Assembly (NCBI RefSeq): GCF_025766255.1
Contig: NW_026516795.1
Location: 1 to 64,000, forward strand
DNA length: 64,000 nt
Direction: 5' to 3'
Source: Zychaea mexicana
Lineage: Eukaryota; Mucoromycota; Mucoromycetes; Mucorales; Lichtheimiaceae
Shown here: positions 57,446-61,958 of the stretch, piece after piece
Position numbering within the stretch: position 1 is the first letter of the stretch
Layout of the letters: each line of letters begins with the position of its first letter
The notes under the pieces: generated by a model
The model's database searches: none
Seen by the model: the letters and a program-made list of their open reading frames with translations, nothing else
Told to the model about the DNA's origin: nothing
Translations under genes and position numbers: made by a program

Positions 57446-60295
57446 ATGGATCAGGCTGTCTACGAAACCTTGCTTCAAGTTGGCAATCCCGATGGCGCCA
57501 TTCGATCTGCTGCAGAACAACGTTTGAAAGAACTCGAAAGCACTTCTCCAGGTAGAAAATTTACACCGTGAATCATCCTTATACATATTAACATAATCAG
57601 CTCCCACCTCTCCCCATATTAACCGCAAATAATACAGAATTCCCTGTGAGCTTGGCTCGATTGACTGTTTCGCAGGAACTTGCGGTGCCTCATCGTCAAA
57701 TATCCTTTTTTTAAAAGCTGTTTTATTGTCGCGCTCGTGCAAAATTAACAATCGTATATGAAAAAAAAACAGCAAAATGAATCCTTAACCACAGTAATTA
57801 CTTGGCAGCATTGACCCTTAAGACCTATGTAACGACCCACTGGGCTGCTCGCGACGACGAGACTTTCCAGGGCCCTGAACCTTCTCCTGAGGTACTTTTA
57901 TTGATAATACGATGAAGAGAGTGTGTAACGAAGGCAAATGGAGGATTCCATTCGTGATAAGCATGTTATTATTTCTTGAATGAATGCTGATCGGGGAGTT
58001 TCCTTTATATTATATAATAGTGCAAAAACGCCATTCGTGAAATTATTGTCCATGGTCTCGGAGATCATGAGTCCAAGATTCGCGTCGTTTCGGCCTATGT
58101 TGTCTCCAAAATTGCACACGATGACTTTCCCGAAGACTGGCCGAACTTGTTTGATGTGTTGCTGAGCTACCTCAAATCAAACAGCGTGGATGGTGTCCAT
58201 GGCGCTATGCGTGTGCTGCTCGAAATGGTCCAGAGAGATATCAGCATTCAGCAGTTGCCTCAGGTCGGCCCTGTCCTGATCCCCGAGCTTTATACTATTT
58301 TGACCTCAGATAATGTAAGTTCTTTGCAGGAAAGGAGATAGCGAGGAGGCAACAAGAAACAGAGGTTCTTATCGTGTATGTATGCATATATGGTCATTCA
58401 GGTGTACTCGTTCCGTACCCGTGGTCGTGCAGTTAGCATTTTCAATAGCTGTGTCCAGATGTTGGATACGCTTCGTGACGATAACCCGGCTGCTGCTGAC
58501 CAGTTTATCGCTCCCATCCTTCCTCAATGGATGCAAGCTTTCCATACCATTCTTGCACATCACGTTCAAGACGATGCCAAGAAGGCTACTGAAGAATATG
58601 GCTTGAAGATGGAAGTAGTTAGAGTAAGTGTCGACAGTAATTTATCAAGATACTCACTTAAAATCATCATACGACACATACAAAAAGGCAGAGATCTACC
58701 GAAGACTGATTTCATCAACTTTCTTTTCTTATATTTATCACACCTGCAGTGTATTCGCACTGTGAGCGGCGAGTACTCAAAATATGTCAGAGATATCCTG
58801 CCTCAATTGATGGAACCTATCTGGGGCGAGCTCTACAACTTGCGTGATAGATACATTGCCGAATTCGTATCTGATTCAGATGATGTGGCCGAATCATTCC
58901 AGGACTCAGACGGTAACGAGATCGGTTTCCAAAGCTTGCTCTATGCTCTCTTTGAGTTCATGGAATCTGCGTGCTCCAAGAAGTCGCTTAAACACTTGTT
59001 CGTTACAAACAACACCCCCACTTCTTTATTTGAAGAAGTTATCTACGTTCTGATTGTATACATGCAAATCACTCAAGATCAGATGGAAACATGGTCTTCG
59101 GATGCCAATCAATATGTTGCGGATGAGGAGGATGGCACATTCACCTATAGTGCTCGTGTCGCGTCGTGGGATGTGCTTACGGTAAGCGAAATATCAACAT
59201 ATGCGTATGTTTGGATTGGCAAGGATGCATGGAGATCAAAATATGAAGAGGAAATTTAACCAAGTGATACTTTTCTTGAAAAAAAAAAGCCATTGCAAGA
59301 AGCATTTCCCGATCCATTTGCTGCTGCTCTTCAAACAGCTGTCCAGCGTCATATTAGTGAATCCAACGCTGCTCGTGCTCAAGGCAACAACTCATGGTGG
59401 AAAATACAAGAAGCCTGTTTGTTGGCCATTGGTCGCTCAGCTGAAGAACTGGTTTTGAGTTTGAAGGACGAATCTCGGTCTGTCCAATTCGATCTCAAGA
59501 GTCTCTTTGATCATATCGTGCTGGAAAGCATGAACCAGACCGCTTTCCCATTTTTACAAGGTAGAGCCTTCGTCTTTGCATCCGAATTTGCCAAGGTTCT
59601 CCCTACTGAAATGGCAGGTCAGTATGTGATGGCTGCCGTCACTGCGTTGCAATCGCCTGCTAGTAGCATCCCTGTCAAGATCTCGGCTCTCAAAGCATTG
59701 AACAAGTAAGTGACTCTTCCAATGACAAACAAAGAAAAAAATCATGCCGACAGATTTTTTTGTGTAACTAAACTTATCGTAATCAATGTATACTTCTTTA
59801 GCTACTGCAAGGACTTGGATCCTCAATACTCGGCTCCATACCAAGTGAACATTCTGGAAGGCGCATGCCAGTTGTTGCCTGACGCTTCTGAAGAGTCTCT
59901 TATGCTCTTGTTGCAATCGTTGTGCTCTGCTGTCAAGGTAACATTTGTCATTACGAGGAAAAATTGAAGTAAGACATGGTTACTTAATTGTAGGGTCCTT
60001 GTTCATGTATAAGATTAACGAAGAAGTTGCCGCCAAGTACGAATATGTGCTGACGCCTGCTGTTCTTGAGACATGGAAGAAGTTCCCCACAGATTCCATC
60101 ATTACAAGCTATATTCTGGATCTGTTCGAGAGCTTTGCTGAGAATCCAGCCTATTTCCCCGCTCTTTGTGCTCGCTCGTTCCCCTTCTTTGAACAAGTTT
60201 TCAAGACTCCTGGCAACGTACCTCCTGTCCTTGCTGTAAGTTTTCTTGTTTGACTGTATATTAGGGTAAACAGACTAGCTTTATCTCGTAATCGC

Positions 60296-60335
<40 letters not shown>

Positions 60336-61958
60336 AATTGGTTGTATATAGTCAGTCGTTGACTTATTGACAGCTTTGGTCCGATTCGGTCCTTCACCTC
60401 TTCCGAACGAATTCACGGACCAAATGTTCCCTATTGTGATGCAGCTTGGCTGGAATGCTGAAGACGAGGATGTCTTGCAGAGCGTCCAAGAGTGCTTGAA
60501 GCAATACATCATCAAGGACTGTGACCATATTATCCAATGGAATGACGGCTCTGGAAAGTCGGGTCTTGACTATGTGATCCATTTCGTTGCTCGTTTGTTG
60601 GAGCCCAAAAACTCTGCATCTGAAGCTCTCTTTGTAGGCGATTTGATTGTCAACCTGATCAGGAAGGCCGGCAATAACATTGCTAGTGTCCTTCCCGAGC
60701 TTTTGAATGCCGTGTTGATCCGTCTCCAAAACACCGATTATCAACCATTCGTTCAGGTACTTTCAGGGCTCTTTTTATTTTTAAATGAGGAATAGGCTGA
60801 GAAACGTGTTCGAAATGCTTTTAAATAACACGCAGTTTTTCTGTATAGTCTTTGGTGCTAGTGTTCGCCCATTTACTTATTCAGCAGCAGGATACCGTCT
60901 TCCAATTCCTTTGTGCTACAAACATTGAGGGTCGTAGTGGTCTGGAGATCCTGTTGCCCATGTGGTGTGATTATTTTGGCTCGTTCTCAGGATACTACTC
61001 CCTTAAAGTCAGGTAAGAAAATAGGAAAAACGCGTTATGAAGCATGGTTGATACGACACCCAGAAAAAGGGGGAGGACGCAGACGATCAGTATGCTTATT
61101 ATCACGTGTTTGTTCCATGGTTAAATAGCGCAATTGCACTTTCCAAGCTGTTTTTGATCAACGACCCTCGACTTCAGAACTTGACCGTTCGTGGCGATAT
61201 CGTTGCTAACCCTGAAGGTGGTATTGTGACCCGATCCAAAGCCAAGCGCAGTAAGTCCATCATGCTGAAAACCAGCATTGATTACACAAAAGTCTCAAAT
61301 GCGCATCCAGACTCACACGCGAACTTGTACAAACCATTATTGTGAAAGATCCCGAGCAATACACTGCCATTCCTGTACATGCCAAGATTATCCGCCTGTT
61401 GGTTGATGATTTGCAGAACAACATGACTACAGACCAAAGTGGCCAGGCTGAAGAAGTGGAGTCCGTGGGTGATGATGTAAGGATAAAACGTACAAACTAT
61501 AAGAACAACCAGAAACCCGAGAAAAGCTACGTGTATACTAATGTTTTGTTTAGGATTGGGAGGATGAGCCTTCTACTGATCTTGCCGATATCCAGTATCT
61601 ATCAGGTAATGTGTCTTTACTAAAATAAGATTAAAATTGATAATTATCAATTTTATGCTAGTTTTTCAGTAGATTCTACACTTAAAATGTGTTGGTGTTG
61701 GCAGGGTGGAAGAACCAAAATTTCTGATGACATTTCTTGCATGAATTATTAGATATGCTTGCTGAGCTGGATGACGACTATGAAGAGAACAACCCGGAAT
61801 TGAAGGACGATCCTATTTATCAAACGGATATGAAGGGCTATCTCTTGGACTTTTTCCGTAATTGCTCAGCTCACAACACGAATCATTTTGTGGAGATCTG
61901 CCAGCATCATTTGGACGACCTTCAGAAGGAAACATTGAACTTTGCTTTGAAGAACTAA
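57446..61958 (+). CDS. KAP114: Importin-9/Kap114 family nuclear import receptor
   Basis: Fifteen exons: 57446-57551, 57638-57699, 57802-57891, 58021-58314, 58402-58623, 58750-59181, 59290-59705, 59802-59937, 60014-60235, 60352-60756, 60849-61012, 61129-61250, 61349-61476, 61554-61605 and 61753-61958. They give 1,018 residues with every phase consistent. The protein aligns with human IPO9 from end to end: AAEQRLKELE, LARLTVSQELA, RQLAALTLKTYVTTHW, GVHGAMRVLLEMVQRD, RTRGRAVSIFNSCVQML, VYILYMQIT-like IVYMQITQDQ, DEEDGTFTYSARVA, WWKIQEACLLAIG, FLQGRAFVFASEF, GDLIVNLIRKAG, VTRSKAKRNPEQYTAIP, and the end DDPIYQTDMKGYLLDFFRNC. It is an all-HEAT-repeat karyopherin that carries histones H2A-H2B, TBP and ribosomal proteins into the nucleus. 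Intron 2 is of AT-AC type, unlike all the others. Confidence 0.96.
57700..57801 (+). other. U12-type AT-AC intron of the importin-9/Kap114 gene
   Basis: The 102-nt intron starts ATATCCTTT at 57700, the exact minor-spliceosome 5' splice consensus, and ends in AC at 57800-57801 (TAATTAC). A branch-site match ATCCTTAACC lies at 57781-57790; the branch A at 57788 is 13 nt from the last intron base, within the narrow window known for U12 introns. Removing exactly these bases (phase 0) joins CATCGTCAA to TTGGCAGCA and gives HRQLAALTLKTYV, which aligns without gap to human IPO9 (RQLASVILKQYV). No GT-AG pair tested nearby keeps the frame. Confidence 0.9.
60301..60332. repeat. (TC)n microsatellite inside an importin intron
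   Basis: About 16 TC units lie in the intron 60236-60351, where they form an unusually long polypyrimidine stretch 20 bp upstream of the acceptor at 60351. Confidence 0.9.

What the first reader, a model, noticed from the sequence alone, without database searches (positions are those of the whole stretch)
57700..57801. Canonical AT-AC U12-type intron in a fungal importin gene
The 5' end ATATCCTTT, the branch site ATCCTTAACC 13 nt before the 3' end, and the terminal AC all match minor-spliceosome consensus. Excising exactly this segment restores a gap-free match to the importin-9 family (RQLAALTLKTYV). Every other intron I modelled in the window is GT-AG. Minor introns are lost from Dikarya but have been reported in some Mucoromycota, so this implies a working U11/U12/U4atac/U6atac machinery in this organism.
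Basis: partly seen in the sequence, partly recalled or inferred. Interest (0 to 1): 0.85.

Follow-up and report, generated by a model that had tools for sequence, protein, structure and literature searches.

The report
Minor-spliceosome intron in fungal importin-9 gene
A mould related to Circinella has, in the gene for the nuclear importer importin-9, one of the rare introns removed by the cell's second splicing machine; such introns are already known from related moulds, so this is a clear new example and not a new kind of thing.

Summary
Bases 57700-57801 start ATATCCTTT, carry TCCTTAAC 13 nt before the end and finish in AC. Of 84 open-frame excisions listed, only this one restores RQLAALTLK. 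The finished 15-exon gene aligns to Circinella umbellata IPO9 over 1018 residues without a gap (92%); its other 13 introns are GT-AG. The genome (50.3 Mb) holds full-length U6atac (55 bits), full-length U11 (73 bits) and the U11/U12-25K protein. The 5'-site-plus-branch pattern occurs 26 times against 4 for its reversed control. Six further sites joined at an AC end read through a conserved domain. U12, U4atac and CENATAC were not found by limited searches. No transcript was seen. This is a U12-type AT-AC intron in a Mucorales fungus. Minor introns are published for Rhizopus, Phycomyces and Rhizophagus, and minor snRNAs for Lichtheimia, so it is a new member of a known kind. One unexplained point: basidiomycete IPO9 annotations look as if they run into an AT...AC intron at this same position, in a group reported to lack minor introns.

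The parts
57700..57801 (+). AT-AC U12-type intron, 102 nt, phase 0, intron 2 of the importin-9 gene
   Evidence: removal restores the gap-free reading against Circinella IPO9 and PDB importin-9
57700..57708 (+). 5' splice site ATATCCTTT; could pair with U6atac AAAGGAGAGA
   Evidence: sequence; U6atac box; pairing is inferred
57782..57789 (+). branch-site motif TCCTTAAC, second A 13 nt before the 3' end
   Evidence: sequence; the motif pair is enriched genome-wide
57800..57801 (+). 3' splice site AC; no pyrimidine tract between branch site and end (by eye)
   Evidence: sequence
57446..61958 (+). importin-9 gene, 15 exons, 1018 aa plus stop, 13 GT-AG introns and one AT-AC
   Evidence: gene model; homologues; Pfam and PDB importin-9 (both with the first 890 residues)
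57638..57699 (+). exon 2, ends ...PHRQ
57802..57891 (+). exon 3, begins LAALTLKTYV

Best explanation
Bases 57700-57801 are a U12-type (minor-spliceosome) AT-AC intron in the importin-9 gene of a Mucorales fungus close to Circinella. U11 would recognise the 5' site, U12 would pair with TCCTTAAC, U6atac would replace U11 at ATATCCTT through its AAAGGAGAGA box, and the intron would be removed at ...CAA|AT...AC|TTG, joining RQ to LAALTLK. Shown: the motifs, the unique restoration of the reading frame and conserved protein among the excisions listed, the presence of U11, U6atac and the 25K protein, and a genome-wide excess of similar motif pairs. Inferred: splicing in the cell, the presence of U12 and U4atac, and each pairing step. 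Its position is probably old in fungi, because annotations of other fungal IPO9 genes often break at this same point.
For: Motifs and chance rate. Retention gives two stops; of 84 excisions listed only this one restores RQLAALTLK. The completed protein aligns to C. umbellata IPO9 with 0 gaps over 1018 residues, 91.9%, and its first 890 residues align to PDB importin-9 without a gap at this point. U6atac RF00619 55.4 bits, cut-off 33, full length; control genomes 0 of 14. U11 RF00548 72.7 bits, cut-off 39, full length, 5' AAAAAGGGC; at the loose E <= 1 used there, 1 of 14 control genomes also rang, below the cut-off. U11/U12-25K: PF18036 in two exon pieces, 42.1 and 24.9 bits, the weaker running over one stop; the joined protein matches PDB 8r7n U11/U12-25K at 1.2e-13 and PF18036 at 91.9 bits. 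Genome-wide pattern TATCCTT-N61-91-TCCTTRAC: 26 matches against 4 reversed; shorter spacing 27 against 5, 13 of the 27 being one coding-like repeat on C168. Six other sites joined at AC read through a conserved domain: L029 DIS3-like, L030 FANCD2, L036 PPME1, L035, L042 and L044 by Pfam, L044 also by a solved structure.
Against: No transcript data. U12 (RF00007, 42 candidates scored) and U4atac (RF00618, 48 scored) were not found. Hand-made U12 patterns gave 10 matches against 9 in the control and 38 against 72, with no U12 by Rfam in those loci. The U4atac pattern gave 2 against 4. CENATAC (PF14968) was not found. The Lichtheimia paper says that other basal fungi do have one U4atac copy, so its absence cannot simply be expected. 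On the other side, the search tool says that nothing rang in its control genomes and that its answer does not show absence.
Confidence: 0.95

Rival explanations
1. A GT-AG intron at 57695-57808 is used instead: GTCAAA donor inside the Arg codon and GGCAG acceptor. It keeps the frame but loses four residues net (HRQLAALTL becomes HPLTL).
For: It keeps the frame. Several public mucoralean annotations show just this kind of deletion: Apophysomyces PQ----PLSLK, Helicostylum PQ----PVTLK, Rhizopus microsporus PQ-----LTLK.
Against: RQLA is conserved from PDB importin-9 to Circinella. The donor GTCAAA is poor. It leaves the complete ATATCCTTT and TCCTTAAC motifs unexplained. The public gaps look like products of gene finders that only allow GT-AG, which is my inference.
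Confidence: 0.03
2. An AT-AC intron removed by the major (U2) spliceosome, as some AT-AC introns are.
For: U2-type AT-AC introns are known (recalled). U12 and U4atac were not found here.
Against: The 5' site is ATATCCTTT and not the ATAAGT-like form of U2-type AT-AC introns (recalled), and the branch motif is the U12 consensus. U11, U6atac and 25K, specific to the minor spliceosome, are present.
Confidence: 0.02
3. The gene is damaged or the segment is an insertion or assembly error, not an intron.
For: None found.
Against: The rest of the gene is intact, 1018 residues with no gap against C. umbellata, and similar segments sit in other conserved genes.
Confidence: 0.005

Closest known systems
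U12-type introns of Rhizopus oryzae and Phycomyces blakesleeanus (PMC2846911, passages seen)
   Same: Same order (Mucorales, by recall for these two), AT-AC and GT-AG U12-type introns
   Different: Another species and another gene; the paper's table gives 3-4 in R. oryzae and 17-20 in P. blakesleeanus by its two methods. Whether its set includes IPO9 was not seen.
Minor introns of Rhizophagus irregularis and Basidiobolus meristosporus (PMC10639083, passages seen)
   Same: Fungal minor introns; for Rhizophagus also the minor snRNAs and proteins including SNRNP25
   Different: Those genomes are reported with 205 and 249 minor introns; here only strict-consensus pattern counts exist, an excess of about 30 over the controls
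Minor spliceosome of Lichtheimia corymbifera (PMC4133162, passages seen)
   Same: Mucorales, and by name the family of Circinella, Lichtheimiaceae; four of five RNAs found, U4atac missing, second half of U6atac divergent
   Different: There U12 was found, with a reduced stem; here it was not. The paper says other basal fungi have U4atac.
Importin-9 of PDB 10sm/6n1z (human by recall)
   Same: Same protein family, gap-free across the junction
   Different: The intron position and type in the human gene were not tested

Membership tests
U12-type AT-AC intron | 5' splice site ATATCCTT at the first base of the intron | tested here: met
   57700 ATATCCTTT, 8 of 8
U12-type AT-AC intron | branch motif TCCTTRAC about 10-20 nt before the 3' end, no pyrimidine tract | tested here: met
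   TCCTTAAC 57782-57789, A 13 nt from the end; tail CACAGTAATTAC
U12-type AT-AC intron | AC 3' end and exact restoration of the coding frame and conserved protein | tested here: met
U12-type AT-AC intron | minor snRNAs U11 and U6atac in the same genome | tested here: met
   Searches (72.7 bits; 55.4 bits), both over cut-off and full length
U12-type AT-AC intron | minor snRNAs U12 and U4atac in the same genome | tested here: inconclusive
   not found; 42 and 48 candidates scored in the two family searches, and the tool warns that absence is not shown
U12-type AT-AC intron | minor-spliceosome-specific proteins | tested here: inconclusive
   25K found; CENATAC not found; 65K, 31K, 48K, 35K and 20K not searched
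U12-type AT-AC intron | removal depends on the minor spliceosome in vivo | not testable with these tools
   needs RNA
Importin-9 (IPO9) | IBN_N and IPO9 central HEAT domains, full length close to IPO9 orthologues | tested here: met
   (first 890 residues); 91.9% over 1018 residues to C. umbellata; PDB importin-9 1.7e-167

The most novel reading that the evidence does not exclude
The AT-AC intron at RQ|LA of IPO9 is an ancestral fungal U12 intron, and an AT...AC intron persists at the very same place in Basidiomycota, a group reported to lack minor introns: either changed in place to a U2-type AT-AC intron (for example ATAAGT, read as Ile-Ser) or kept with an ATATCC-like start. That would be a direct U12-to-U2 switch that keeps the AT and AC ends. 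Basis, annotated proteins only: of 26 named basidiomycete homologues 22 keep RQ; in 17 of these the next codon is ATN (10 Ile, 7 Met; 6 are Ile-Ser), in the other 5 it is Ser as in the exon (rows). Where annotations enter exon 3 from the upstream side otherwise than through RQ, the residue just before the exon is His in 4 of 4 basidiomycetes (P0088, P0091, P0102, P0113) and Tyr in the mucoralean P0013: codons CAY and TAY, which fit an intron ending in AC and not in AG. No DNA was reachable.
Probability: 0.5. Interest if true: 0.6.

Novelty: new member of a known kind. Interest (0 to 1): 0.35.

Why it matters
It adds a well-supported case to the sparse record of minor splicing in Mucorales. It also points to a practical problem: gene finders that allow only GT-AG appear to truncate or shorten IPO9 at this point in public fungal genomes. 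Of the first 30 homologues (Mucoromycotina where named), 12 are intact at the junction, 6 have a gap there, 11 lack the whole stretch and 1 is otherwise changed. If the basidiomycete hint is right, the gene offers a direct test of how a U12 AT-AC intron is taken over by the major spliceosome.

Tried and rejected
U12 snRNA: RF00007 over the genome, the pattern AGTAAGGAA-N32-62-WTTTTTG (10 matches against 9 in the control) and GAGTAAGGAAA (38 against 72). Rfam over one search's 10 loci (E up to 1), over 30 loci (E up to 0.5) and over 6 short stretches (E up to 1; the remaining 2 of the 38 lie's loci L016 and L017) gave no U12. Reading 45 candidate places by eye after local folding gave none either. 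The motif is recalled from human U12.

U4atac: RF00618 and a pattern built from the U6atac sequence and recalled U4atac pairing (2 against 4); neither locus was U4atac by Rfam. CENATAC PF14968: none.

Other genome sites: of the 26 matches I joined 10. One search printed L030 in a wrong frame; the reading used was re-framed by me. Six of the ten cross a conserved domain. L037 only abuts one; L034 (frame uncertain) and L046 matched no Pfam family; L023 was not submitted. The ends of L029, L030, L036 and L044 were picked with the homologue in mind, so the AC ends there are partly selected. The other 15 of the 26 (without IPO9) were not confirmed; L043 reads as coding sequence and is probably a false match, and 4 are preceded by T or C and not by A or G (L028, L033, L040, L047).

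Literature: 'U12-type introns' with Mucoromycota gave one paper, on the Osgin gene family (listing). 'minor introns', fungi, U6atac, Rhizopus, at least three of four, gave 10 papers, of which I saw passages of four. 'minor spliceosome' with Mucorales gave two, both among these. IPO9 with 'minor intron' gave one paper, on FUS (listing). 'U12-dependent' with Circinella gave none. 'AT-AC intron' with Basidiomycota gave three and 'U12-type' with Dikarya three (listings); 'AT-AC introns' with 'fungal genomes' gave two (listing). The library lacks most subscription papers, and supplements could not be read.

An earlier count said 7 Ile-Ser cases; the rows and one search give 6. The automatic counter (10 I, 6 M, 5 S, 3 A, 2 L) also caught other RQ places; the count of 17 is from the printed rows. 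In Mortierella-like homologues the residue before the exon is also His, but after Arg (QRH|SAA, 17 proteins); whether that is a true His or the same artefact is not known.

Full report
What was checked. The window is contig C38:1-64000 of a 50.34 Mb genome in 305 contigs. The segment 57700-57801 reads ATATCCTTT at its start, TCCTTAAC at 57782-57789 and AC at its end. Within the window the combined pattern occurs once, here, against 0.01 expected by shuffling.

The gene. Fifteen exons between 57446 and 61958 give a protein of 1018 residues, 91.9% identical to the annotated importin-9 of Circinella umbellata (Mucorales, Lichtheimiaceae) with no gap. The first 890 residues match PDB importin-9 (human by recall) at 1.7e-167 and run without a gap through this point (IRQLASVILK against HRQLAALTLK). 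Pfam finds the importin-beta N-terminal and the importin-9 HEAT domains. Thirteen introns are GT-AG, one is AT-AC.

Is the excision right? Retaining the segment gives two in-frame stops. One search listed 84 excisions that keep the frame open, with GT, GC or AT starts and AG or AC ends; only 57700-57801 restores RQLAALTLK. The nearest GT-AG choice, 57695-57808, loses four residues net.

Public annotations. 120 of 135 homologues were listed. In an alignment of their first 400 residues (tallied) the annotations of many fungi break at this very place. Of the first 30, Mucoromycotina where named (taxonomy recalled), 12 are intact, 6 have a gap at the junction, 11 lack the whole stretch and 1 is otherwise changed. 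Of 62 taken between P0001 and P0064 (without P0052 and P0061) the numbers are 33, 14, 14 and 1. Truncations can have other causes, so this is a hint, not a proof, of a shared AT-AC intron. Batrachochytrium dendrobatidis reads RQ-ISF-SALTLK, which is what reading into an ATATCCTTY intron start would give (inferred). Cokeromyces (P0013) reads ...FFFVY|LAALTLK, as if it had read out of an intron ending in TAC (inferred). Two intact proteins that resemble the Umbelopsis one by eye (P0026, P0027) come from contigs of 3258 and 3178 bases that hold the full protein, which fits spliced transcripts (inferred from lengths).

Machinery. U6atac is present at C262:166089-166232, full length, 55.4 bits over a cut-off of 33, with the AAAGGAGAGA box. 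U11 is present at C232:324205-324340, full length, 72.7 bits over a cut-off of 39, with 5' AAAAAGGGC and AUAAUUUUUG; at the loose threshold one of 14 control genomes rang too, below the cut-off. The U11/U12-25K protein lies on C12:76507-76806 in two pieces, the weaker (24.9 bits) running over one stop at what I read as the exon end. Joined at GT-AG sites, it matches the 25K chain of the solved U11 particle 8r7n at 1.2e-13. Not found: U12, U4atac and CENATAC. The tool warns that nothing rang in its control genomes, so absence is not shown. In Lichtheimia U4atac was also not found and U12 lacks a stem, but that paper says other basal fungi have a U4atac (PMC4133162, passages). In Apophysomyces U12 and U4atac were not found while U6atac was (PMC5604411, passage).

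Genome-wide set. TATCCTT-N61-91-TCCTTRAC occurs 26 times against 4 for the reversed pattern. With N30-60 the count is 27 against 5; 13 of the 27 are a coding-like repeat on C168, leaving 14. Ten sites were joined. Six read through a conserved domain across the junction: a DIS3-like exonuclease, gap-free; FANCD2, gap-free; PPME1, with a two-residue gap two residues before the junction; an ALG9-like mannosyltransferase (PIGB by recall), VPS11, and an ALG6/ALG8 glucosyltransferase (the last). All six end in AC, though four ends were picked with the homologue in mind. An inositol polyphosphate kinase match begins just past the junction (L037).

Known or new. Minor introns in R. oryzae and P. blakesleeanus are published (PMC2846911, passages), and large sets in Rhizophagus and Basidiobolus (PMC10639083, passages). 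The same paper reports no convincing minor introns in Ascomycota and Basidiomycota. So this is a new member of a known kind.

An open point. Of 26 named basidiomycete homologues, 22 keep the RQ motif. In 17 of these the next codon is Ile or Met (ATN), 6 of them Ile-Ser; in 5 it is Ser, as expected of the exon (rows). In four basidiomycete annotations that enter exon 3 by another way (P0088, P0091, P0102, P0113) the residue just before the exon is His, codon CAY; an intron ending in AG would leave Gln, Lys, Glu or a stop there. Both signs fit an intron that starts with AT and ends with AC at the same place as in this window. Whether it is a U2-type AT-AC intron, an ATATCC-like relic or a set of annotation accidents cannot be told without DNA and transcripts.

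Noticed in passing
homologues P0084-P0119, residues after RQ and before SA: In 17 of 22 named basidiomycete IPO9 annotations that keep RQ the next codon is ATN, and in 4 of 4 that enter exon 3 otherwise the residue before the exon is His (CAY), as if an AT...AC intron sat at the same place as here, in a group reported to lack minor introns.
   Followed up: partly
L029, L030, L035, L036, L042, L044 around position 1500: AT-AC introns with U12 motifs inside DIS3-like, FANCD2, ALG9-like, PPME1, VPS11 and ALG6/8-type genes of the same genome.
   Followed up: yes
G000 C168:230845-241404: A coding-like repeat, mostly about 640 bp apart, carries TATCCTT...TCCTTGAC 13 times and inflates the pattern count.
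   Followed up: no
L009:1501-1644 (C262:166089-166232): The 3' half of U6atac has an insert relative to the Rfam model (31 positions against 9 in the cut stretch), in line with the divergent second half reported for Lichtheimia.
   Followed up: no
window 60300-60331: A CT microsatellite inside intron 9 of the importin-9 gene.
   Followed up: no
L051 and L059; L068 and L069: Pairs of similar stretches at different places of the genome, looking like dispersed repeats.
   Followed up: no
Mortierella-like homologues P0034, P0037, P0039-P0051, P0055, P0057: They read QRH|SAA (or SAV) where other fungi read RQ|SA or RQ|LA; a true His or an annotation effect at the same junction is not known.
   Followed up: no
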